Under the pieces are notes generated by a model, which was not told where the DNA came from, did not search any database, and saw only the letters and a program-made list of their open reading frames with translations. The translations under genes and the position numbers were made by a program. A stretch of 25,679 nucleotides of DNA from a virus. Positions within the stretch are counted from its first letter, which is position 1. Every line of letters starts with the position of its first letter. Below, one piece after another: positions 13,320 to 25,679 of this stretch. The stretch is from positions 1 through 25,679 of the IMG/VR virus record IMGVR_UViG_3300030118_002834; one strand, written 5' to 3'.

Positions 13320-16028
13320 TTATGTACCGAAACAGAAAGCCCCAGCCTGTTTAACTGCAAAGTCAACATCTTGAAGGGCAATAACTCGTACATTACCACT
13401 AGTTGCGCCCGCAAATGGATCAACAGTTAAATCAAGGCCAGACCAGAAGCCAATACAGAACTGACTAAAGTCTCCAAATAAAGCATCATTATTAGCGAGT
13501 TGATTTGTTGTTATAACTGGATAACCATTTATCTCGTTATTTTCAAAAACAAACTTACCTGTTCCTGATGCAACTTCTGTTGACTTTAAAGCACCTCTTG
13601 CTGAAGCATTAATTAAATAGAACATATTAGCTACATCTGCGTTTGCAGCAGCAACATCAGTTTCCATACCAATATACTCTTGGAAAGTACCAAAAGTAGT
13701 AATAGTTTGAGATCCAATTCCAGTTGTATCTTTAATACCTAATGGTTGGTTTGATGAACCAGTACCATAAATAGCAGTATGGTCTAATTTTGTAGCAATT
13801 ATTTTCGCCAAATCGTCTCTAATCATTGATTCGACGTCTATAGATGACTGCAATAACAAACGTCTTGAGTAGTCAACAAACGCTGCTACTGTTTTTGGAG
13901 TCATATTCACTTGGTCGAACGCCTGTTGGCTCTCGCTAGGAGCAGATCCCTCTCCAACAAAGAATCCAGTCGCAGTCTGCGTTAGTCTGGGAATACTTAC
14001 ATTACCTGATAACCCTGTTAAAGTTGTTGGGTTTGTTGCCATAACCGCCATGCGGTTTCTCAAAATGTCAATAAAAGATCCCGATAGTAGCTCTGTGGCA
14101 ACAAGATTACCTCCAGCAGTAGCAGTACCAACGGTTAAATCCCTTGCTAGTACTTCGTTAGGAACAAGGATACCGCTTGCTGGTTTGTCATAACGTTTTG
14201 ATGCTTCATCAGAAACCTCTCTTTCAAAAGCCGCAGCTTCTTGAGCAGCCCTGTCACTAGGATTTGCTAAAGCGTGTAATGCCCTTGTAAAAGAAAATCT
14301 TTTAATTTCTTTTTGGTCTAAACCAACTTCTGATGATTTTGTTTGAATTTGTTGTTCCACAGTGTTAAGACGATCCTCCCTGTAAGTGTTAATAGCATTG
14401 CGGGCATCCTCAATTGATGCTCCTTCTTGATTTAGTTTATGAGCTAAATCTGGACAAGAATATTTCTCGCCCATTGCTGTAATCGCATTGCTACGATTTC
14501 TTTCAGCAATTATTATGGTTTCACTGCGTTTTTGCTCTGCTTCAACGGCTTTGCTTGCAGCTTCCGTTTCTGGTTTTTGCTCCATATTGTTGGAAGTGAT
14601 ATTTGGACTAGATGACGGAGCTTGAGCCGTCAAAGCTTCCCTAGATTGCTCTAGGTTGGCTGCATTATCTTTTGGAGGAGACTCTGCAACCTTATTAGTA
14701 TCTATATTATCTTTTATTTCTATACTTCGCCCTACTCCAACTGATGCGTCTGCTGGAACTGAAACAAGGGACACTTCCATGGCCTTCCATTTTGTTACAA
14801 CCATTTGATCACCACGTTCCTCTATCTCATTTATTTGATAAGCAAAACTAACTTGAGAAATAATTCCATCCTCAACATCTGTTCGTTTTTCAACTGCATT
14901 TGGATTTCTACTCCATTTAATTGTTGCGTAACCTCTTCTGTCCTCTGAAATTTCTGCTTTCTGTACTACACCAAGAACTTCATCCCTATTGTGATTCCAA
15001 AGAAATGGAGCAGTACCATTATTTAAACGAGATAAATCGGCAGCGTTTTTATCGTGTGATAATACTTCTTGTCCAAAATACCTTTGTACTGGTTCTTCAG
15101 AACTAAAACTCATAAATAATTCATTACCATCAGACTCTATTTCTGCTTTTAATTCCCTTACTTGTACTAATGATTCGCCTTTATTTCTTTTCTTTAATTC
15201 TTTTAAATCAAGTTTTCTAAATTGTGATATTTCTTCATTATTTTTTTTCTTCTCATCATCATGATACGGACGACCCATTTCATCTTTATAAGGTTTTGGT
15301 CTACCCTCTACAGAATCTTCACTAATTGGTAAATCATTAATTTTAGTTAATGTACTAAATTTATGTCCAACTAAACGATCAGTTTTTACAAAACCACTTC
15401 CAGATGATGCTGGTCTATAAATACAGATTAAGGCAGCTGGATCTTCTGCTGTACCATCAACAGTAAAGCTGCTGTCTGGTATATCAATTGTTCCATTTCT
15501 CTCAATTTTTTCAATCATACCTCTAGCTCTTCCACCACTATTATTCCAAGAGACAAAATCACCTACTTTTAATTCATCTGGTTCTGCCTTTATATTGTCT
15601 TGTGGTTTTTCTAAAGTTGAATCCATACTTTTTTCCTTAGTGTTGTATTCATCATACATAGTTAAAACATTATCATCAAATCTTGCTCTTGCTTTTTTTA
15701 TTTGTTCTGATTTTTTTCTACTCCAACTAAAACCAGCATCTGATCCCCATGCACTCCACGCAACTCTTCCGGGACTTGGATAACCTTTTTCGCCTGCTTT
15801 AAACCCTTCTGCTTTTTTGTCAACTTCATGCCTGCTAAAAAAACTAAACATTCTCAAAGTAACGTCAACACTTAATTCTTGACCACTTAAAATTTGTGTT
15901 GCTCGTCTAGCTGCAACTGCAGTACCCCCTTTTTTACCCTGCTCTTTCCATTTTTTATATTGCCTAGCACCAGCTTTCATACCCTCAGTAGGCTTTAAGT
16001 CAATTTCAACACCATTAACATTAGCCAT
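13320..16028 (-). CDS. Prohead protease-major capsid protein fusion with N-terminal accessory modules
   Basis: One 902-residue frame joins several parts. Residues ~15-115 hold a conserved phage module ('LRMFSFFSRHEVDKK', 'GYPSPGRVAWSAWG'). Residues ~153-230 resemble a small tudor-like domain ('VGDFVSWNNSGGRARGMIEK', 'LVGHKFSTLTKI'). Residues ~285-435 are a serine protease of the HK97 prohead type, with His346 in 'LWNHNRDEVLG', Ser394 in 'SQVSFAY' and the family's 'EVSLVSVPA' at 418-426. Residues ~480-610 are charged and helical, suited to a scaffold/delta domain. Residues ~620-902 are an HK97-fold major capsid protein ('GNLVATELLSGSFIDILRNR', 'QPLGI', 'VITTNQL'). The protease would free the capsid subunit after prohead assembly, removing the rest. 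The start has no clear Shine-Dalgarno sequence. Confidence 0.92.
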   Translation of the reverse strand: MANVNGVEIDLKPTEGMKAGARQYKKWKEQGKKGGTAVAARRATQILSGQELSVDVTLRMFSFFSRHEVDKKAEGFKAGEKGYPSPGRVAWSAWGSDAGFSWSRKKSEQIKKARARFDDNVLTMYDEYNTKEKSMDSTLEKPQDNIKAEPDELKVGDFVSWNNSGGRARGMIEKIERNGTIDIPDSSFTVDGTAEDPAALICIYRPASSGSGFVKTDRLVGHKFSTLTKINDLPISEDSVEGRPKPYKDEMGRPYHDDEKKKNNEEISQFRKLDLKELKKRNKGESLVQVRELKAEIESDGNELFMSFSSEEPVQRYFGQEVLSHDKNAADLSRLNNGTAPFLWNHNRDEVLGVVQKAEISEDRRGYATIKWSRNPNAVEKRTDVEDGIISQVSFAYQINEIEERGDQMVVTKWKAMEVSLVSVPADASVGVGRSIEIKDNIDTNKVAESPPKDNAANLEQSREALTAQAPSSSPNITSNNMEQKPETEAASKAVEAEQKRSETIIIAERNRSNAITAMGEKYSCPDLAHKLNQEGASIEDARNAINTYREDRLNTVEQQIQTKSSEVGLDQKEIKRFSFTRALHALANPSDRAAQEAAAFEREVSDEASKRYDKPASGILVPNEVLARDLTVGTATAGGNLVATELLSGSFIDILRNRMAVMATNPTTLTGLSGNVSIPRLTQTATGFFVGEGSAPSESQQAFDQVNMTPKTVAAFVDYSRRLLLQSSIDVESMIRDDLAKIIATKLDHTAIYGTGSSNQPLGIKDTTGIGSQTITTFGTFQEYIGMETDVAAANADVANMFYLINASARGALKSTEVASGTGKFVFENNEINGYPVITTNQLANNDALFGDFSQFCIGFWSGLDLTVDPFAGATSGNVRVIALQDVDFAVKQAGAFCFGT

Positions 16029-16163: not shown

Positions 16164-16988
16164 ATGAGAGACACATCTTTTTTAGGAAAATTATTAGCAC
16201 TAACTGAAAGTACTAATAAACATGAAGCAGATTTAGCAAAAACTAAATTACTGCAACAACTAGAGAAAAGAGGTATTGATTTAAAACAACTAGAGCAACA
16301 ACTTGGTGATATGTCTGTTGTTGAGGAGGAAATAGAAGTAATAGCTTTTAGATTTGGATCACCTTATAAACGTATTGATCCAGCAGTAGATATTATTATT
16401 AGTGCGGTTGCTGATTACTATAATGGAAAAATTGTTTATACACCTTATAAACTAGAGAGAACTGGAAACCAAAAACACCAAAAAGAATATATTAAAGACT
16501 CAAAAGGTAAAATATATAGACAAATAGAAATAAGTGCTAGTAAATCTAGGCAAATAGAAATTGAATTATACGGAGATTATCTTATACAAGCATTACAAGA
16601 TGAATGGGCAAGACATTGTCAAACCGATCCATTTGTAGTTGCTATGAATGGTACAGCCTATAGAAATGATTTTAGAAAAAACTGGGCATGGAAAGTACAA
16701 GAAAGATTTGAGCAAATGAAAAGAGATGAGCAACAAAATGGTAGGCAATTAAAATTAGCTAATAAAACAATTAATGTATCCGCACTAGCTGTAGTAAACG
16801 CTAATAAAAATGAGTTAGCAAAGGTTGAAGAATTTTACGCAGAACGTTATCCAAGTTTTGGTAAATCAAGTGGTGGATATACAGGTGGTAGTACTAGCGG
16901 TGCAATGGCAGGAAGTACCGCTGGAAGTAAAGTAGGTTTAAGCAGACAAATGTCAGGTAACAGTCAAAAACGTTTATCTGGTTATTAA
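16164..16988 (+). CDS. DUF2786-like protein of unknown function
   Basis: This 274-residue protein is the only plausible gene on the plus strand. Its start 'LGKLLALTESTNKHEADLAK' and 'LLQQLEKRGIDL' (residues ~7-40) match the DUF2786 pattern, a short helical domain found in phages and bacteria. The middle (about 55-200) is mixed alpha/beta, with 'AFRFGSPYKRIDPAVDIIIS' and 'DYLIQALQDEWARHC'; no catalytic signature is clear to me. The C-terminal ~45 residues are a low-complexity Gly/Ser tail with 'GGYTGGSTSGAMAGSTAGSK'. A GAGG ribosome binding site lies 8 bases before the ATG and a good promoter lies upstream. The gene sits between portal and capsid, convergent with the portal gene with 3 bases between the stops. 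It could be a regulator or an accessory (moron) gene; neither is shown. Confidence 0.8.
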   Translation: MRDTSFLGKLLALTESTNKHEADLAKTKLLQQLEKRGIDLKQLEQQLGDMSVVEEEIEVIAFRFGSPYKRIDPAVDIIISAVADYYNGKIVYTPYKLERTGNQKHQKEYIKDSKGKIYRQIEISASKSRQIEIELYGDYLIQALQDEWARHCQTDPFVVAMNGTAYRNDFRKNWAWKVQERFEQMKRDEQQNGRQLKLANKTINVSALAVVNANKNELAKVEEFYAERYPSFGKSSGGYTGGSTSGAMAGSTAGSKVGLSRQMSGNSQKRLSGY

Positions 16989-19052: not shown

Positions 19053-20930
19053 CTACCATTGTGTAACAAATTTAGGCTTTTCAGCCTTTCTTCTTCTTAG
19101 CTTATCAATATTTTCGTTATTTTCCTTTATTTTGCCCTTAATTCTCCCTCTTTCTTCATAAACGTCCCAAATTGTTCTTCTATCTCGTTTTTGATATAGT
19201 CTATGTAAACCAGCATAAGCGTAAACTAACGTATCCAAAGCTTCATTACGTGCAGATGATTTTTTTACCCATTCTCTTATTGGAAAACCTTTTACAAATC
19301 TAATAATCTGTTTTTCTGCTGTTAGTTGTTTAAAATATTCTTCGTCTGCTTTTACATTAAAATGTAAATATCCAGCACCACTCTCAACATGACGTAACCT
19401 TGAAAATAATGTGGTTTTAATTGTATCTGTACCAACTGTAAATAATTCTGCACCTTGTTTAATAACTCTTCCTTTCCAATTTAAATCTAATTTTTTTCCT
19501 TTTCCTATAGGTGGTTTATCTTTAATACTTGCACCTTTTATAGCAATTACACCATACTTTCGTCTGTCTCTTGTGTAAGCGTAAACTTCACTAGTATAGT
19601 GACCACCAGAATCCACAGCTATGACATCAGGTTTAATTGTATTACCTAATTCATGTCTATAAGGCCTAAGTAATAATTGATCAAGTTGTTTCCATAATTC
19701 ATTACTTCCGGGATCTCCATAAATTTCCTGATGATCAATTAACCAACCTTCTTCACCCCTACCCCATGCCCAAACACTAATTGCAAGTCTATTATCTTGT
19801 ACGTCAACTCCTGCAGTAAGGACAACAGCTTTTTCTGGTATCATATTGGACTCATAAGACTCAACTCTTTCCATTAATACGTCAGCACCAACTTTTGCTG
19901 CGTAGTTTTCTTCGTAAGTTTCTCCAAGAACTGTATTTACAAAAGTTTTTAATCTTTGTGGGTCGGCTTTTGCTTTTAAAAAATCATCAACAATCTCTTC
20001 CCAACCTTTCCAACCCAATGGAGAATATAAACCATTTAAATGAAATCCAGCAGTTTTACCGTCACTTGGAGCAGTTGCTCTCCATTCACCACGTTCTAAA
20101 AAATAGTGTTTATCTTTTTCTACAAATTTTTTACCACAACTTTCACATTCATATTTAACAGTTTTAGGATTATTATCTTTCCATTTAACTTGACTCCATT
20201 TTAAATATTGCATGTGACCGCAGTGTACGCAGGGAACATAATATCTGCGTTGGTCACTTTCTAAATACTCTTGTTCAATACGACTAAAATCTTTAATAGT
20301 TGGTGTTGATGTCATTAAAATTTTTCTTCTGCTAAATGTCATTGTTCTTTTTTCAGCAAGACTTACAGCATCTCCTTCATTATCTAGGTCAGGTGGAAAA
20401 GCATCTATTTCATCCATAAAAATATAACGACAAGGCATTGATCTTAAACCTACGGCACTATTAGCACCAGTTAAAACCATTATTCCTCCCGGAAAATCTT
20501 TTGAAAACATAGTATTGCCACTATCTCTACTTCTGGCAGGAGCTACTAAATTACTTAAAATAGGAGTATCATTGATAAGCCCTTCTAATCGTTGACGACT
20601 TAACCTTTTTGCCATTTCTAGGGTGGGTTGAATGACAAGCATACTGGCGGGTGAATTAGAAATTACATAACCTAACCAATTTGATCCCGCTTCAGTTTTT
20701 CCAAGTTGGCTCGCAAACTGTAGGACAACTCTTTGTATAGGATTGTCTGTAGATAAACAGTCCATAGGTTCTATTAAATAAGGTGTTCGTTTGTTTTTCC
20801 ATGCCCCTGCTTCGCTACTTGATTTACTACTTAAAATTCTATGTTTTTCAGCCCACTCAGAAACATTTAATGGTTCCTCAAACTGCAAACAATTAATACA
20901 GTCTTTTATTAATGTTTTAACTAATGTCAA
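19053..20930 (-). CDS. A: Terminase large subunit, lambda gpA-like
   Basis: This 625-residue protein is the packaging motor and nuclease of the lambda A family. The ATPase part has a Walker A variant 'QLGKTE' at 75-80, Walker B 'YIFMDEIDAF' with Asp173-Glu174, and the coupling motif 'LMTSTPT' at ~205-211. A zinc-ribbon-like CxxC pair follows (Cys234/Cys237 and Cys262/Cys265). The nuclease part has 'GVDVQDNRLA' with Asp376, 'VIAVDSGGHY' with Asp440 and a late 'ALDTLVYAYAGL', giving the acidic residues of an RNase H-like active site. The start is TTG: the first Met is too late to include the conserved 'WAEKHRIL' segment. The start overlaps the small terminase by 14 bases and has an AGAGGGG site 10 bases upstream. 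Confidence 0.96.
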   Translation of the reverse strand: MTLVKTLIKDCINCLQFEEPLNVSEWAEKHRILSSKSSSEAGAWKNKRTPYLIEPMDCLSTDNPIQRVVLQFASQLGKTEAGSNWLGYVISNSPASMLVIQPTLEMAKRLSRQRLEGLINDTPILSNLVAPARSRDSGNTMFSKDFPGGIMVLTGANSAVGLRSMPCRYIFMDEIDAFPPDLDNEGDAVSLAEKRTMTFSRRKILMTSTPTIKDFSRIEQEYLESDQRRYYVPCVHCGHMQYLKWSQVKWKDNNPKTVKYECESCGKKFVEKDKHYFLERGEWRATAPSDGKTAGFHLNGLYSPLGWKGWEEIVDDFLKAKADPQRLKTFVNTVLGETYEENYAAKVGADVLMERVESYESNMIPEKAVVLTAGVDVQDNRLAISVWAWGRGEEGWLIDHQEIYGDPGSNELWKQLDQLLLRPYRHELGNTIKPDVIAVDSGGHYTSEVYAYTRDRRKYGVIAIKGASIKDKPPIGKGKKLDLNWKGRVIKQGAELFTVGTDTIKTTLFSRLRHVESGAGYLHFNVKADEEYFKQLTAEKQIIRFVKGFPIREWVKKSSARNEALDTLVYAYAGLHRLYQKRDRRTIWDVYEERGRIKGKIKENNENIDKLRRRKAEKPKFVTQW

Positions 20931-21417
20931 TTGTCTTTAACCCCTCTAAACATTCTCTTATTTCAGTAGAAATAATATTATGAATCTTAGCCGAATCAGA
21001 TTCAGCAGCAACTATTGGTGAAATTCTATCAGGTATTGTTCTTAAGTTATCTCTGACTTGTAAATGTAATTTGGCTAACGCTAATTTTAATTCGTCGTAA
21101 GGTACTAATTTTTTTGACCTTTCTTCAAATTCTAATTTTTGTAACCTTGCTGCGTACATTTCTTTTATAGCCCTATTAGCTGCTAATGATGGCATTGGTG
21201 ACTTTTGACTTTGATCTATATATTCTTTTGGTTTTATTTTTGTTAATACTGGCGAACTACGACCTAAAGCTGCATCTAATTCCTTATCAGCCTTATCAGG
21301 GTCAATATACCATTTACGACCAATTTGTTTAGCACTTGGAATCATACCGTTTCTTAGATATTTTGTTACCATTGCTCCACTTACTTTTCTGTGATTTGCG
21401 TAAGCTTTTGCGTCCAT
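20917..21417 (-). CDS. Terminase small subunit, lambda Nu1-like
   Basis: This 166-residue protein lies directly before the large terminase, as Nu1 does in lambda. Its first ~50 residues form a winged helix-turn-helix of the Nu1/MerR-like type: 'YANHRKVSGAMVTKYLRNGM' followed by the wing 'KQIGRKWYIDPDKAD'. This part would recognise the packaging site on phage DNA. The rest is mainly helical and charged ('NRAIKEMYAARLQKLEFEER', 'LALAKLHLQVRDNLRTIPDR'), suited to dimer formation and contact with the large subunit. The start follows the QueE stop by 2 bases, so the terminase genes are probably on the same transcript as the modification genes. Its end overlaps the large terminase start. Confidence 0.88.
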   Translation of the reverse strand: MDAKAYANHRKVSGAMVTKYLRNGMIPSAKQIGRKWYIDPDKADKELDAALGRSSPVLTKIKPKEYIDQSQKSPMPSLAANRAIKEMYAARLQKLEFEERSKKLVPYDELKLALAKLHLQVRDNLRTIPDRISPIVAAESDSAKIHNIISTEIRECLEGLKTIDIS

Positions 21418-21419
21418 GA

Positions 21420-22076
21420 TTATCTAACACCCATATATTTATGAGTTTGAATACTTATTCTCCATTGATTATCCATTGCTGTTTGTACACATAAATTAGT
21501 ATTTTCTTCTTTTTGACTTACTGGTTGTAGCCATACTAACTTGTCGTACTTAACATTTTTAACCAATTTTTCTAGATTTTTAACGTCTTTTAAGCAATTT
21601 ATTGGCATTTTAAGCTCATTTGCACGATTTAGTGCTGTATTAAGTATTTTTAAACCTCCACCCATGTTTATCTTTGGACTTACCGTTACAAATGTTTTTT
21701 CATATACTTTAATTTCATGAGTACCACTAGTTTCAAGTTGAACTGTACCAACATCCGATAATAGTTTAGTTAATTTAAAAATATCTTGAGAGCAAGGCTC
21801 ACCGCCAGTTAGGACAAAATGTCTTGGTCTTAATTTAGTTACAATATCAACAATTTTAAATTCGTTAACACTAGCCCACTTTGGGCTGTCTTTAATTTTT
21901 TTTAGCATTTCATTTATTGTTATTTCGTGTTTATCTAAACCTTTTGACCATGTATGTTTAGTATCGCACCAGTGACAACCCACTGGACAACCTTGCAATC
22001 TAATAAAAGTTGCTGGTGTACCTGTCCAAAATGCTTCCCCTTGAACAGTATCAAATATTTCGTTAATTCTTAGCAT
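21420..22076 (-). CDS. queE: 7-carboxy-7-deazaguanine synthase (QueE)
   Basis: QueE is a radical SAM enzyme that turns 6-carboxy-5,6,7,8-tetrahydropterin into 7-carboxy-7-deazaguanine. The 218 residues fit the family size. The N-terminus 'FDTVQGEAFWTGTPATFIRL' is the family signature, the Fe-S cluster motif is Cys30-x3-Cys34-x2-Cys37, and 'LTGGEP' at 89-94 is the SAM-binding GGE motif. 'HKYMGVR' closes the protein in the usual way. All key residues seem present. It overlaps the phosphoribosyltransferase gene by 14 bases and is the last modification gene before the terminase. It works with FolE and QueD, encoded upstream. Confidence 0.95.
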   Translation of the reverse strand: MLRINEIFDTVQGEAFWTGTPATFIRLQGCPVGCHWCDTKHTWSKGLDKHEITINEMLKKIKDSPKWASVNEFKIVDIVTKLRPRHFVLTGGEPCSQDIFKLTKLLSDVGTVQLETSGTHEIKVYEKTFVTVSPKINMGGGLKILNTALNRANELKMPINCLKDVKNLEKLVKNVKYDKLVWLQPVSQKEENTNLCVQTAMDNQWRISIQTHKYMGVR

Positions 22077-22446
22077 AGTAATTTAATTTATCATTTTCAG
22101 CGTTACTAACATTTTCCCAAGCAAAAATAATCCAATCATTACTGCCTGTATATTTATAAGAATCAAACCATGTTGGTTTCTCTTTTGATATTAAAACAAA
22201 ATATGTACAATTTACATAATCCTTATATTTTTTCAGTGTTTTACCCGAATCATATATATCGTCAACAATTAAACAATTATCTTGAGGTAAATCAAGCAAA
22301 GGAATATTTAAATAATGACTTAATTTAACAGCTAAACACAAACCACCTCTAGGAATACCATAAATACCAATAAATTTTTGATTTTTATATTTTTTATAGG
22401 CATATTCAATACCTTTATCAAAATCAAACCAACTAAATTTAATCAT
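22063..22446 (-). CDS. Type I phosphoribosyltransferase
   Basis: The 127 residues carry the two hallmarks of a type I phosphoribosyltransferase: 'GIPRGGLCLA' (about 30-39) and the PRPP-binding loop 'CLIVDDIYDSGKTL' (58-71) with Asp62-Asp63. The enzymes transfer a ribose-5-phosphate to a base or, in a minority, act as regulators. The pattern 'PRGG' and the short size suggest a relative of xanthine/guanine phosphoribosyltransferases, but the hood region that sets substrate choice is short and I cannot name the substrate. It lies between QueD and QueE, overlapping QueD by 4 bases and QueE by 14, so it is part of the modification operon. A salvage role for guanine released by base exchange is a possible link. 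Confidence 0.85.
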   Translation of the reverse strand: MIKFSWFDFDKGIEYAYKKYKNQKFIGIYGIPRGGLCLAVKLSHYLNIPLLDLPQDNCLIVDDIYDSGKTLKKYKDYVNCTYFVLISKEKPTWFDSYKYTGSNDWIIFAWENVSNAENDKLNYYAKN

Positions 22447-22895
22447 GGTAAATAAATAGCAGAATTTGTATCATGCTCTTTAACTTCTATTTGTGTAACT
22501 TTACAACGACCATTAAATTCACTTTTACTTAACCAAGTATTAGCTAATTCATAAACTTTATAAGCAAACATTTCACAACCAACTCCATCCTCTAAAATTA
22601 CTAATTGTAGTAAACCTAATTTTTCACCCTCTTTAAACCATTTTATATGAGGGTCGTTTTTATCAATTAATGTTTTATGGTCAAATGTATCTCTAAAAGT
22701 TTGCTCTAATTTTTTCATACCACCAAAATCAACAACCCAATTACGTTCATCTAAATTTTCCGCTTCAAATACTATTTTTATTTCTAAAGAGTAACCATGT
22801 AAAAATCGACAATGTGATTTTGCTTTGTATTGTCTAAAGCAGCAGCTAAAACCTTTTGTTGCTTTATATGTTTTTGTAGATTTAAATTTACCCAT
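22443..22895 (-). CDS. queD: 6-carboxytetrahydropterin synthase (QueD-like)
   Basis: QueD converts dihydroneopterin triphosphate to 6-carboxytetrahydropterin, the substrate of QueE. The 150 residues have the fold pattern of the family: 'HCRFLHGYSLEIKIVFEA' with Cys29 at the place of the catalytic Cys, 'WVVDFGGMKKLEQ', 'FDHKTLI' with Asp72-His73, and a late 'QIEVKEHDTNSAIYL' with the catalytic Glu region. Two of the usual zinc ligands differ: the first 'AAH' is Cys18-Cys19-Phe20 and the 'HGH' is His33-Gly-Tyr35. This variant also occurs, as I recall, in other phage and bacterial QueD-like proteins. It overlaps FolE by one base and the next gene by 4. Confidence 0.88.
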   Translation of the reverse strand: MGKFKSTKTYKATKGFSCCFRQYKAKSHCRFLHGYSLEIKIVFEAENLDERNWVVDFGGMKKLEQTFRDTFDHKTLIDKNDPHIKWFKEGEKLGLLQLVILEDGVGCEMFAYKVYELANTWLSKSEFNGRCKVTQIEVKEHDTNSAIYLP

Positions 22896-23572
22896 TATTG
22901 ATAACCCTGACCCTTAAATATATCCATTAATTCGCTTCTTGCTTCGGGTGTTGTTCTGAAAATACCCCTCATGACACTTGTAACCATTTCAGTTTCATTA
23001 TCTTTAACACCACGCCATGTCATACATTGATGTTTAGCTTTAATTATTACTGCTAAACCTTTTGGTTTTATTAGTTTTTCTATAGTGTCTGCTAATTGTA
23101 TTGCTGCTTCTTCTTGAATTTGTGGTCGAGACATAACCCAATCGGTAATTCTATTAAATTTACTTAAACCAATAACACGATCACTAGGTATTACACCAAT
23201 CCAACATTTACCAATGATTGGCACTAAATGATGAGAACAAGCAGACCTAACACTAATAGCACCGACTGTATAAATTTCATCAAGTTTTTTTGCATTTGGA
23301 AAATCAGTAACTTTTGGCATTTTTGTGTATCTACCTTTAAATACTTCTGTTAAATACATTTTTGCAACTCTATTTGCGGTGTCTTTTGTGTTGTGATCAT
23401 TTTTTGTGTCAATAATTAAAGTTTCTAAAAGTTCTTGTAATTTACCGCTTACTTCTTTTTGTAAAAGATCAAGTTCATTTTCTTGTATAAAATCAGCAAT
23501 ATTATCATTAGCAAAATAACTAGCTTTTGCTAACTCAAGTCTTTGTTTAATAGTTTTGTGAATTGGTGTCAT
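22895..23572 (-). CDS. folE: GTP cyclohydrolase I (FolE)
   Basis: FolE opens GTP to 7,8-dihydroneopterin triphosphate, the first step to both folate and 7-deazaguanine. The 225 residues are the normal size. The zinc site is present: Cys112 and His115 in 'SACSHHLVPI', and Cys183 in 'HQCMTWRGV'. The conserved 'IGLSKFNRITDWVMSRPQIQ' (134-153) and 'TIEKLIKPKGLAVIIKA' complete the family pattern. In this context it supplies QueD rather than folate. The ATG overlaps the methyltransferase stop by 4 bases and its stop overlaps the QueD start by one, showing tight coupling. Confidence 0.96.
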   Translation of the reverse strand: MTPIHKTIKQRLELAKASYFANDNIADFIQENELDLLQKEVSGKLQELLETLIIDTKNDHNTKDTANRVAKMYLTEVFKGRYTKMPKVTDFPNAKKLDEIYTVGAISVRSACSHHLVPIIGKCWIGVIPSDRVIGLSKFNRITDWVMSRPQIQEEAAIQLADTIEKLIKPKGLAVIIKAKHQCMTWRGVKDNETEMVTSVMRGIFRTTPEARSELMDIFKGQGYQ

Positions 23573-24147
23573 AATTTTTGTAATTCGATTGATAATAAAG
23601 TTTCTTCATGTGTTTTAGGATTAGGGTGTTTTAAACGGTTTAAATAAAATTCTTTTTCAACTACATAACTTAATTTTTTTATTTGTTTTATTTTCCAGTA
23701 GGTAAATAAATTACATAGATTTTTTTCGGTTCTAAAAAATTTTGTTTCATTAATGCTGTTATATTTTTTATCAGCTAAATTTTTATTAACAAACTGGATT
23801 ACTAATATTCTTTTTACATTACTACAAAATAGATGAGTAAATAAATTAGTAACCTCTTTGTCCTTTAAATAATGAAGTAAATATCTCATTACCACTAAAT
23901 CACAATCAGGTTTATAAGTTTTTATATCTTCAACAATGTCAGGTTTTTTTGTAGGGTCTATATCAATACTTAAACTATTAGGAATATATTTTTTTAATAA
24001 CCCATTAGCACCACCATAATCTAAAACTTTACCTTCAGTATTTACACCGTTTAACATTGCTGGCATAGCATCATCATATAGTAGTTTTGATGTTGTATCT
24101 TCCCAAGTTCCAAAGTCTGTTCCTTGATCTATATTAAAAGTTTTCAT
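23569..24147 (-). CDS. Class I SAM-dependent methyltransferase, substrate unknown
   Basis: The 192 residues have a Rossmann-type SAM site: motif I 'KVLDYGGANGLLKKYI' (about 40-55), an acidic end of strand two 'SIDIDPTKKPDIVEDI', and 'CDLVVMRYLLHYLKDKEV' in the place of motif IV. These mark a small-molecule or protein methyltransferase of the Methyltransf_11/25 type; no DNA-methylase DPPY/NPPY motif is seen. The C-terminal half is lysine- and asparagine-rich. It overlaps DpdA by 4 bases and FolE by 4, so it belongs to the modification operon. It might modify the deazaguanine base or an unrelated target. Confidence 0.8.
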   Translation of the reverse strand: MKTFNIDQGTDFGTWEDTTSKLLYDDAMPAMLNGVNTEGKVLDYGGANGLLKKYIPNSLSIDIDPTKKPDIVEDIKTYKPDCDLVVMRYLLHYLKDKEVTNLFTHLFCSNVKRILVIQFVNKNLADKKYNSINETKFFRTEKNLCNLFTYWKIKQIKKLSYVVEKEFYLNRLKHPNPKTHEETLLSIELQKL

Positions 24148-24983
24148 TTTTTCACTCCTATTTGATATAAATGATTAAAACCTTGTGCTAATAAATCAAA
24201 AGCTAAATTTGTTGCTAATGCAAGAAATAGTTTTGTTTTTGTATGTCTTTCAATATCTACACTCATGTGAACACCACTTCTAGCACATAAATTTCTTGAG
24301 TAACTTTTACCTCCATGCCAAGATTCTTTTTTTGCCATTTTATAAGGGTCTATTCCTAGTCTTTTTATAGTGTTAATTATTTGTTCGTTTGGTTTGTTTT
24401 TAAATTCTTTTTTTTGTATAGTAGCAAATTTGCCTTTGCCTAAATAAAGCCTTAATGCACCATATCTTGCACCAGACTCCCATGAACTACTGTCACACAT
24501 ATAAGGTTTATATGCTTTTATATATTCGATATTTGTAAAACCTAGTAAATGAACTTTTCTACCTTTTGCAGCACTCATAATTCCATTAACATAACCTTTT
24601 CTTTTTTTACCCATAAAAGCATTAATACCACCAAATCCAACGACGTCACTTTTAGTGTAAAAATAATCTATTGCTGCTTTATCCTCTCCCGGAGTATAAA
24701 TTGGAACAGGTTTAAACCCACGTTCTAACATTATCTCAAAATTTTTTGCTGTTTTATCTGCGTCCCCTATAACGTCTAATGAAAAATACCTCCAAGGTTT
24801 TGGATTACAAGTTTCTACAAATTTACAATAATCATCTAATTCAATTTTTTTTCCTGTTTGCCATGCTGTAAATGCACCACAATCTAAAAGAAACCTCATT
24901 CTATCTTGTGGAAAGTTTTTCATTTTATCCATAAGATCTGGTGTACAATACGGATAAGCAACTAGAACATTTAATTTATCCAT
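24144..24983 (-). CDS. dpdA: DpdA-like deazaguanine DNA transglycosylase
   Basis: This 279-residue protein has the TIM-barrel pattern of the tRNA-guanine transglycosylase (TGT) superfamily in its short phage DpdA form. Signs are 'RFLLDCGAFTAWQTGKKI' with Asp34, 'WRYFSLDVIGDADKT' with Asp70, 'PVPIYTPGED', 'VVGFGGI' (114-120), 'VHLLGFTN' with His145, and 'CDSSSWESGARYG' with Asp164. DpdA exchanges guanine in DNA for a 7-deazaguanine base. The typical zinc site of tRNA-modifying TGT enzymes is not visible. The linked FolE, QueD and QueE genes support a DNA-modification role. The start overlaps the ParB-like stop by one base. Which base it inserts cannot be told from the sequence. Confidence 0.85.
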   Translation of the reverse strand: MDKLNVLVAYPYCTPDLMDKMKNFPQDRMRFLLDCGAFTAWQTGKKIELDDYCKFVETCNPKPWRYFSLDVIGDADKTAKNFEIMLERGFKPVPIYTPGEDKAAIDYFYTKSDVVGFGGINAFMGKKRKGYVNGIMSAAKGRKVHLLGFTNIEYIKAYKPYMCDSSSWESGARYGALRLYLGKGKFATIQKKEFKNKPNEQIINTIKRLGIDPYKMAKKESWHGGKSYSRNLCARSGVHMSVDIERHTKTKLFLALATNLAFDLLAQGFNHLYQIGVKK

Positions 24984-25573
24984 TATTTAATTTCGATAAC
25001 TATATTGTTGCTACTACAATATTCGTTAAGATTTTTGATTACCTTGTCTTTATTTTCTTCATCTAACAAGACAGTAAATTTTGCTTGAATTGCATCTAAA
25101 TGTTCATCATCATTTTTTATTACTTCTTCTATATCAGTTGCCCACCCATCTTCTTGCAAAGATTTTAATTCTTCATCGCTCCAACCTAAAATATTTAAAT
25201 CAAAATCTTGAAGGTTTAACTTAATTATTTCTTCTGCTAATAAGTCCTCGTTCCAAGTAGCATTTTCAGCTAATTTATTATCTACAAGTATATATGCCTT
25301 TTTTTGATTTTCGCTTAAATGGTCTAAAACAACTACAGGAACAACCTCTAAAGCTAATTCTTTTGCTGCGGACAATCGACCATGACCAGCAACAATGCCG
25401 TCGTTACTATCAACCAAAATTGGATTAAGAAAACCAAACTCAACAATGCTTGCTGCTATTTGTGCTACTTGTTGCTCGCTATGTTCTCTAGCATTTTTTT
25501 CATAAGGTTTAAGTCTATCCAAATTCCATAACTCAATTTTTTGAGCCATAGTTACGCTATATTTATTATTCAT
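24983..25573 (-). CDS. ParB/sulfiredoxin-fold DNA-associated protein
   Basis: The protein has a ParB N-terminal-like (ParB/Srx) domain of about 110 residues: 'LDRLKPYEKNAREHSEQQVA', 'IVEFGFLNPILVDSNDGIVA', 'GHGRLSAAKEL' and 'DNKLAENATWNEDLL'. The GHGR box is the nucleotide-binding/catalytic signature. The C-terminal ~70 residues are acidic and helical, without the helix-turn-helix of chromosome-partition ParB. Free-standing ParB-like proteins of this kind are common in phages, often beside DNA-modifying enzymes. I chose the ATG at 25571-25573 (196 residues), with a weak GGA 8 bases upstream. An ATG at 25585, one at 25552 or a TTG at 25627 are alternatives. It overlaps DpdA by one base. Confidence 0.82.
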   Translation of the reverse strand: MNNKYSVTMAQKIELWNLDRLKPYEKNAREHSEQQVAQIAASIVEFGFLNPILVDSNDGIVAGHGRLSAAKELALEVVPVVVLDHLSENQKKAYILVDNKLAENATWNEDLLAEEIIKLNLQDFDLNILGWSDEELKSLQEDGWATDIEEVIKNDDEHLDAIQAKFTVLLDEENKDKVIKNLNEYCSSNNIVIEIK

Positions 25574-25679
25574 TTTGGTTTCCATGACCTGATAATAGTG
25601 CGTTACATAAAAAAATGCTAGTCCCAATTAACCATATTTGGTGTCTAACACTAAAAAAAGAACGAGGTTGGCAAACACC
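25574..25679. other. Upstream edge of the operon, no clear gene
   Basis: No complete gene fits this 106-base stretch. On the minus strand one frame stays open from the window edge to the TAA at 25565-25567, which overlaps the ParB-like ATG, and another is open from the edge to a TAA near 25627; either could be the end of a gene beyond the window, but neither shows a recognisable domain. An imperfect inverted repeat (GTGT at 25642-25645 and ACAC at 25649-25652) is present. I see no convincing promoter boxes. Confidence 0.35.

What the first reader, a model, noticed from the sequence alone, without database searches (positions are those of the whole stretch)
21420..25573. Compact 7-deazaguanine DNA modification operon placed directly before the terminase
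FolE, QueD, QueE and a DpdA-like transglycosylase lie in one run of genes that overlap by 1-14 bases, together with a ParB-like protein, a methyltransferase and a phosphoribosyltransferase. Known phages with folE/queD/queE/dpdA replace guanine in DNA with 7-deazaguanine derivatives and so resist host restriction. Here the cassette continues with only a 2-base gap into the small terminase gene. The coupling to packaging, and the extra genes, are not features I know from described phage sets.
Basis: partly seen in the sequence, partly recalled or inferred. Interest (0 to 1): 0.8.

Follow-up and report, generated by a model that had tools for sequence, protein, structure and literature searches.

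The report
Phage DNA-modification operon with QueC-replacing methyltransferase
A virus of bacteria carries, at the very end of its genome and just ahead of its packaging genes, a gene set that swaps guanine in its DNA for a modified base; one standard enzyme of that set (QueC) is missing and an undescribed methyltransferase family sits in its place, which predicts a DNA base not yet seen.

Summary
In detail: ParB-DpdA-MT-FolE-QueD-PRT-QueE-TerS-TerL, one overlapping minus-strand run at 19053-25627. DpdA, FolE, QueD and QueE are identified by profiles, motifs and, for DpdA, homology to the dPreQ0 phage CAjan. The window end is a natural genome terminus shared by relatives.

What is new: QueC, the preQ0-forming enzyme, is absent. 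In most relatives the gene directly after dpdA is queC or gat-queC. Here, and in 18 other non-redundant viral loci, it is an undescribed class I methyltransferase family beside dpdA; QueC occurs in 1 of those 18 loci against 53 of 57 others. The family is missing from 50,697 phage records and was not found in a GTDB species scan. DpdA's base-reading loop changes with it in the nearer lineages (GGLV to GGIN). Most likely the phage inserts a base derived from 7-carboxy-7-deazaguanine and caps the carboxylate as a methyl ester. The chemistry is inferred, not shown. New variant of a known kind.

The parts
25586..25679 (-). genome left terminus (cos-like end, GGTGTTTGCCAACC...) and leader before the first gene
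   Evidence: Relatives' contigs end at the same base; L095 appears to span the junction, with a TGGTGTTTGG-like sequence between another ORF and ParB
24983..25585 (-). ParB_N-domain protein, DpdB-like partner candidate (ATG at 25585; longest ORF reaches 25627)
   Evidence: PF02195 E=1.4e-7; phrog_620 E=8e-55; ParB near DpdA in 52/57 non-MT and 16/18 MT loci
24144..24983 (-). DpdA DNA-guanine transglycosylase, 279 aa; D34, D70, D164 invariant; loop GGIN at 118-121
   Evidence: phrog_887 E=1e-30; hhalign to CAjan DpdA 99.7%, E=7e-26; AF2 pLDDT 89 with viral DpdA fold hits; conserved residues
23569..24147 (-). class I SAM methyltransferase of an undescribed family, in the slot held by QueC in relatives
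22895..23572 (-). FolE, GTP cyclohydrolase I
   Evidence: PF01227 E=5.3e-49; phrog_2197 E=7e-53
22443..22895 (-). QueD, 6-carboxytetrahydropterin synthase-like; variant lacking two of the three usual zinc histidines
   Evidence: PF01242 E=2.2e-18; phrog_2389 E=3e-43; alignment A5
22063..22446 (-). PRT, type I phosphoribosyltransferase, purine PRT-like; proposed guanine salvage
   Evidence: PF00156 E=1.6e-9; nearest solved structures purine/xanthine PRTs, 1vdm E=1.7e-12; homologous to the N-terminal domain of VpKK5 FolE
21420..22076 (-). QueE, 7-carboxy-7-deazaguanine (CDG) synthase, radical SAM motif CPVGCHWC
   Evidence: phrog_2076 E=4.8e-40; 49% identical over 98% to a Salmonella chromosomal radical SAM protein beside a queD-like gene
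20917..21417 (-). TerS, terminase small subunit
   Evidence: phrog_57 E=6.6e-25
19053..20930 (-). TerL, gpA-type terminase large subunit
   Evidence: PF05876 and PF20454, E below 1e-90

Best explanation
A phage 7-deazaguanine DNA-modification cassette of the known FolE-QueD-QueE-DpdA kind, sitting between the packaging terminus and the terminase genes, in which preQ0 formation (QueC) has been replaced by a methyltransferase. Proposed mechanism: FolE, QueD and QueE turn GTP into 7-carboxy-7-deazaguanine (CDG). DpdA, helped by the ParB-like protein, exchanges guanine in finished phage DNA for the CDG-type base. The methyltransferase caps the carboxylate, most likely as a methyl ester, either on the free base or, as favoured slightly by the MT-less sister L014 having the same DpdA loop, on dCDG in DNA. 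The purine phosphoribosyltransferase turns the guanine released by each exchange back into GMP, feeding FolE. Because all genes lie in one overlapping run with TerS and TerL, new DNA can be modified just before packaging, and the base protects it from restriction. Shown by sequence: gene identities, order, missing QueC, MT-DpdA pairing, DpdA loop change. Inferred: substrate of MT, product base, order of the two last steps, guanine recycling, ParB role, co-transcription, protection from restriction. Component estimates: a 7-deazaguanine derivative in DNA 0.9; CDG-derived rather than preQ0-derived 0.7; methyl ester about 0.4.
For: DpdA, FolE, QueD, QueE identities. QueC absent from the window record and from the records of MT-bearing relatives, including 40.8, 59.6 and 62.4 kb contigs. 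The slot holds QueC in L012 (E=4e-64) and Gat-QueC in L028, and MT in window, L002, L003, L004, L092, L109-L112. QueC in 1 of 18 MT loci vs 53 of 57 other DpdA loci, Fisher p=3e-12, MT beside or near DpdA in all 18. MT family conserved (F12, G13, D43, G45, G46, N48, G49, D62, R88, H92, Y93, Q118, R139, R171), class I fold with BioC, a carboxyl O-methyltransferase, as top structural match. L150, a QueC-less cassette, holds an unrelated methyltransferase whose best family matches are two carboxyl methyltransferases, BioC and trans-aconitate methyltransferase. DpdA residue 121 is N in 11 of 14 loci scored as QueC-less and 0 of 57 with QueC/Gat-QueC; it lies in the loop matching the TGT Leu231/Ala232 switch that flips when preQ1 replaces guanine; CAjan, a dPreQ0 phage, has V there. 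PRT closest to purine PRTs and fused to FolE elsewhere.
Against: No modified base has been measured. The window is a 25.7 kb fragment and no relative is proven complete, so a distant QueC is not excluded. L171 has both MT and QueC. The exclusion statistic is not corrected for relatedness: independent-pair tests had too few pairs, and one origin of the N121 DpdAs is not rejected (p-AU 0.53). The more distant MT-linked DpdAs do not have N121. PMC3660597 reports that the Ala232 side chain of TGT makes no substrate contact, and the hhalign match that equates the loops is weak. The class I fold is generic, so BioC as top match is weak evidence for carboxyl methylation.
Confidence: 0.5

Rival explanations
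1. The phage uses the host's QueC (or one elsewhere in its genome) and inserts preQ0; the methyltransferase tailors preQ0-derived bases or does something unrelated.
For: Many bacteria have QueC; the record is incomplete; L171 has both genes. CAjan-type phages carry dPreQ0 with a complete set (PMC6884629).
Against: 53 of 57 relatives without MT carry their own QueC, so relying on the host would be unusual. DpdA's base-reading loop differs from the preQ0-type loop in the nearer QueC-less lineages.
Confidence: 0.17
2. The MT-like protein removes the carboxyl group (a functional analogue of the predicted decarboxylase DpdL, known to me from the abstract of Cui et al. 2023), giving 7-deaza-dG.
For: It would also explain QueC loss and a DpdA with a changed pocket; a CDG decarboxylase (DpdL) was predicted for phages with 7-deaza-dG (own knowledge; paper not held).
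Against: The SAM-binding motif D43-G45-G46-N48-G49 is invariant in 19 members and the fold is a SAM methyltransferase. No homologue in CP220, a phage that I recall carries 7-deaza-dG.
Confidence: 0.12
3. No tailoring of the base: DNA carries dCDG itself, and MT is an independent enzyme, for example a DNA or protein methyltransferase.
For: L014/L015 lacks both QueC and MT and has the same DpdA loop, consistent with plain dCDG, a base reported in phages (own knowledge of Cui et al. 2023).
Against: MT is beside or near DpdA in all 18 loci across several gene orders and DpdA subfamilies, which is not expected of an unrelated gene.
Confidence: 0.15
4. The cassette modifies tRNA (queuosine pathway) rather than DNA.
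For: FolE, QueD and QueE are shared with queuosine synthesis.
Against: DpdA is of the phage DNA type and only weakly related to E. coli TGT (hhalign probability 1.5%) but strongly to CAjan DpdA (99.7%).
Confidence: 0.03

Closest known systems
dPreQ0/dG+ cassettes of phages CAjan and 9g (FolE, QueD, QueE, QueC or Gat-QueC, DpdA; Hutinet et al. 2019, PMC6884629)
   Same: FolE, QueD, QueE and homologous DpdA; same route from GTP to CDG
   Different: No QueC; MT in its place; cassette at genome terminus before terminase; ParB-like gene and separate PRT
Left-end cassettes of mycobacteriophages Typha/Bipper and CRB2 (PMC6392294)
   Same: ParB, DpdA, QueD, QueE, FolE run directly before the terminase at the left genome end (Typha); Typha lists no QueC, and Bipper is reported to lack it (PMC6884629)
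   Different: Typha has an unassigned 141-aa gene after DpdA instead of MT and no listed PRT; CRB2 has QueC
Bacterial dpd island (DpdA with ParB-like DpdB; PMC12839542)
   Same: DpdA paired with a ParB-like protein
   Different: Bacterial system takes preQ0 and makes dADG with DpdC; no DpdC or restriction genes seen here
Flavobacterium phage vB_FspM_immuto_3-5A (MW353176)
   Same: QueD, QueE, PRT, FolE and DpdA in one region
   Different: Has QueF and a formyltransferase-like gene; no MT of this family
BioC malonyl-ACP O-methyltransferase
   Same: Class I methyltransferase fold; top structural match; chemistry proposed here is the same kind (carboxylate to methyl ester)
   Different: 10-13% identity; no sequence family match; a working analogy, not membership

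Membership tests
phage 7-deazaguanine DNA-modification cassette | FolE, QueD and QueE encoded together | tested here: met
phage 7-deazaguanine DNA-modification cassette | DpdA transglycosylase with conserved aspartates | tested here: met
   phrog_887 E=1e-30; CAjan match; D34, D70, D164 invariant
phage 7-deazaguanine DNA-modification cassette | 7-deazaguanine base present in DNA | not testable with these tools
   needs LC-MS/MS
dPreQ0/dG+ subtype | QueC or Gat-QueC (PF06508) encoded | tested here: not met
   none in the window record or in MT-bearing relatives except L171; records may be incomplete
TGT/DpdA superfamily | structural similarity to TGT-family proteins | tested here: inconclusive
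   Best viral fold matches include annotated DpdA-type proteins, TM up to 0.83, but no TGT among the 50 listed PDB matches; the top ones are TIM-barrel and Rossmann proteins with low scores. Sequence homology to phage DpdAs is clear
class I SAM methyltransferase | Rossmann MTase fold with SAM motif I | tested here: met
   model pLDDT 82, 542 PDB matches at E<=0.001, methyltransferases at the top; invariant D43-x-G-G-x-N-G-L
carboxyl methyltransferase (BioC-like) | sequence family match or assayed activity on a carboxylate | tested here: not met
   no NCBIfam carboxyl-methyltransferase match; activity not assayed
DpdL / DpdM / DpdN tailoring enzymes (Cui et al. 2023) | homology to those proteins | tested here: inconclusive
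   paper not held; no homologue in CP220, immuto, phi13:1, Typha or VpKK5
DpdB | ParB-like protein needed with DpdA | tested here: inconclusive
   ParB_N domain and pairing with DpdA; no DpdB match in PADLOC; need for it not testable

The most novel reading that the evidence does not exclude
The DNA of this phage group carries 7-(methoxycarbonyl)-7-deazaguanine, a methyl ester of CDG, made by a dedicated methyltransferase family that has replaced QueC in several lineages: a new DNA base and a new enzyme family, unknown in cultured phages.
Probability: 0.38. Interest if true: 0.78.

Novelty: new variant of a known kind. Interest (0 to 1): 0.6.

Why it matters
Eight 7-deazaguanine derivatives are, to my knowledge, reported in phage DNA. 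A conserved enzyme family that takes QueC's place next to DpdA in uncultivated viruses predicts another one, gives named genes to test, and points to residues in DpdA that may choose which base enters DNA. The interchangeable gene after dpdA (QueC, Gat-QueC, MT, none) shows how phages could change the chemistry of their DNA by swapping one or two genes. Wrapping the cassette with terminase at the genome end, also seen in mycobacteriophages, suggests modification timed to packaging.

Tried and rejected
(1) Novelty of the cassette-terminase junction: rejected after Typha and CRB2. (2) ParB as a foreign extra: rejected, it travels with DpdA. (3) DpdA outside the family: rejected, though PDB fold search found no TGT among its top matches. 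(4) MT as a known DpdL/M/N: no homologue in the phages checked, papers not held. (5) MT in cultured phages or bacterial genomes: none found. (6) A clean count of independent MT gains: not reached; few transitions, one clade not rejected. (7) Finding contigs across the terminus by pattern: only L002 and the L003 contig matched. (8) Distance correlation of MT with other genes: MT tracks ParB, QueD and DpdA, not FolE, but this is confounded by phage relatedness. (9) PADLOC match for DpdB: none. (10) A second occurrence of the L150 methyltransferase: none.
Full report
OBSERVATION. The window (IMG/VR record, 25,679 bases) holds one minus-strand run: ParB-like (ATG at 25585), DpdA, methyltransferase (MT), FolE, QueD, phosphoribosyltransferase (PRT), QueE, TerS, TerL. 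Pfam and PHROGs support every assignment except MT, which matched only weakly. Overlaps are 1, 4, 4, 1, 4 and 14 bases and the QueE-TerS gap is 2 bases, as reported. The rest of the window is head and tail genes of a lambda-like siphovirus plan.

GENOME END. L002 and L003, from other metagenomes, have the same order at 64-96% protein identity and end at exactly the same base as the window (GGTG...). L012, L014, L020, L022, L023 and L025 start at that base or one base before. L095 appears to run across the point, with another ORF on the far side. The window's right end is therefore most likely a natural genome terminus (cos-like), so the cassette lies between the packaging site and TerS.

THE PLACEMENT IS NOT NEW. 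Mycobacterium phage Typha has ParB, a small ORF, DpdA, a 141-aa ORF, QueD, QueE, FolE, one small HTH-domain gene and then terminase from its first gene on, and the CRB2 paper describes a like region, naming ORF1 a possible DpdB because DpdB is a ParB-family protein usually found with DpdA (PMC6392294). In the bacterial dpd system DpdB is a ParB-like ATPase (PMC12839542). ParB was found near DpdA in 52 of 57 non-MT and 16 of 18 MT loci.

A SWAPPABLE REGION. In close relatives with 83-89% identical TerL the region between ParB and TerS holds other genes: a 509-aa ParB-domain protein, a 157-aa ORF that looks HAD-like to me and a 217-aa methyltransferase (L020; L018 and L019 have ORFs of the last two lengths), or a PAPS reductase-like protein, a 174-aa protein and, in some, a GNAT and a 135-aa protein (L022-L026).

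THE SLOT AFTER dpdA. In L012, otherwise like the window, the gene between DpdA and FolE is QueC (PF06508 E=4e-64); in L028 it is Gat-QueC; in L014/L015 it is absent, and the 49.7-kb L015 contig has neither QueC nor MT. Among DpdA relatives in viral contigs QueC is the usual neighbour. The window has MT there. Scans with MT alignments found 25 viral loci. In 18 non-redundant loci MT is beside or near DpdA every time, in several different gene orders, and QueC occurs in one (L171), against 53 of 57 DpdA loci without MT (p=3e-12, not corrected for relatedness). Of the four others, L132 has a divergent QueC-like domain (E=0.001) and L150 carries a different methyltransferase. Large MT contigs of 40.8, 59.6 and 62.4 kb have no QueC, though none is proven complete.

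THE MT FAMILY. It has no match in 50,697 phage records with five diverse queries, none confirmed in one genome of each of 84,980 prokaryote species, and none in CP220, phi13:1, immuto, Typha, Baskent_P4_1 or VpKK5. Nineteen members share a SAM motif (D43-x-G-G-x-N-G-L) and invariant R88, H92, Y93, Q118, R139, R171. AlphaFold2 gives pLDDT 82; Foldseek gives class I methyltransferases, first BioC, which methylates a free carboxylate (the BioC reaction is established knowledge). The fold is generic, so this is only a hint. L150, a QueC-less cassette, has an unrelated methyltransferase whose best NCBIfam matches are BioC and trans-aconitate methyltransferase, both carboxyl methyltransferases, below their cut-offs; it is a single case.

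DPDA COVARIES. The model has pLDDT 89. It matches viral DpdA models and, by profile, CAjan DpdA (99.7%), while the PDB search gave no significant match and E. coli TGT aligned only weakly, over the GGIN and CDSS regions. Between QueC-linked and the nearer MT-linked DpdAs the sharpest differences are V121 to N121 and R98 to P98. N121 is in 11 of 14 loci scored as QueC-less and 0 of 57 QueC or Gat-QueC loci; the preQ0 phage CAjan has V. The matching TGT loop carries the Leu231/Ala232 peptide that flips when preQ1 replaces guanine (PMC3660597), although that paper finds no contact by the Ala232 side chain. MT-less L014 shares N121, so the inserted base may be CDG itself, with methylation afterwards in DNA. 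The N121 DpdAs may be one clade (p-AU 0.53), and the more distant MT-linked DpdAs lack N121, so independent replication is limited.

PRT. Its nearest solved relatives are purine and xanthine phosphoribosyltransferases, and it is homologous to the N-terminal part of the VpKK5 FolE protein. Each base exchange frees one guanine; a guanine PRT joined to FolE would return it to the GTP pool. This is inference.

MECHANISM AND STATUS. GTP to CDG by FolE, QueD and QueE follows established pathway knowledge (summarised in PMC13329287). Insertion of a CDG-type base by DpdA, carboxyl methylation by MT, guanine recycling by PRT and a helper role of ParB are inferred. The most probable reading is a new variant of a known modification kind, with a predicted new base that a short expression experiment can confirm or refute.

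Noticed in passing
window 22443-22895: QueD here and in several relatives has FRQ...HCRFLHGY where the usual QueD has HR...KCRxLHGH: two of the three zinc histidines are replaced while the catalytic Cys is kept.
   Followed up: partly
L018-L026, between ParB and TerS: The same terminal region holds other gene sets in close relatives: ParB-domain protein plus methyltransferase, or PAPS reductase-like plus GNAT; probably other DNA-modification or anti-restriction modules.
   Followed up: partly
L150:4234-4983: A second, unrelated methyltransferase (BioC/trans-aconitate methyltransferase-like) in a QueC-less DpdA cassette.
   Followed up: partly
L166:2043-2468 (Typha gp004): 141-aa protein without any Pfam match in the QueC slot of a QueC-less mycobacteriophage cassette.
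   Followed up: partly
L132:5990-6589: Divergent QueC-like PP-loop protein (PF06508 E=0.001) in the slot.
   Followed up: no
window 13320-16028: Prohead protease (Peptidase_S78) and major capsid protein in one 902-aa gene.
   Followed up: no
window 16164-16988 (+): Lone plus-strand gene (DUF7168-like, phrog_421) between portal and capsid genes, kept in relatives.
   Followed up: no
window 25590-25610: TGTAACGCACTA lies shortly before the ParB start in the window and in L002, L003, L012, L014, L020, L022 and L023: possible promoter or terminase-binding element.
   Followed up: no
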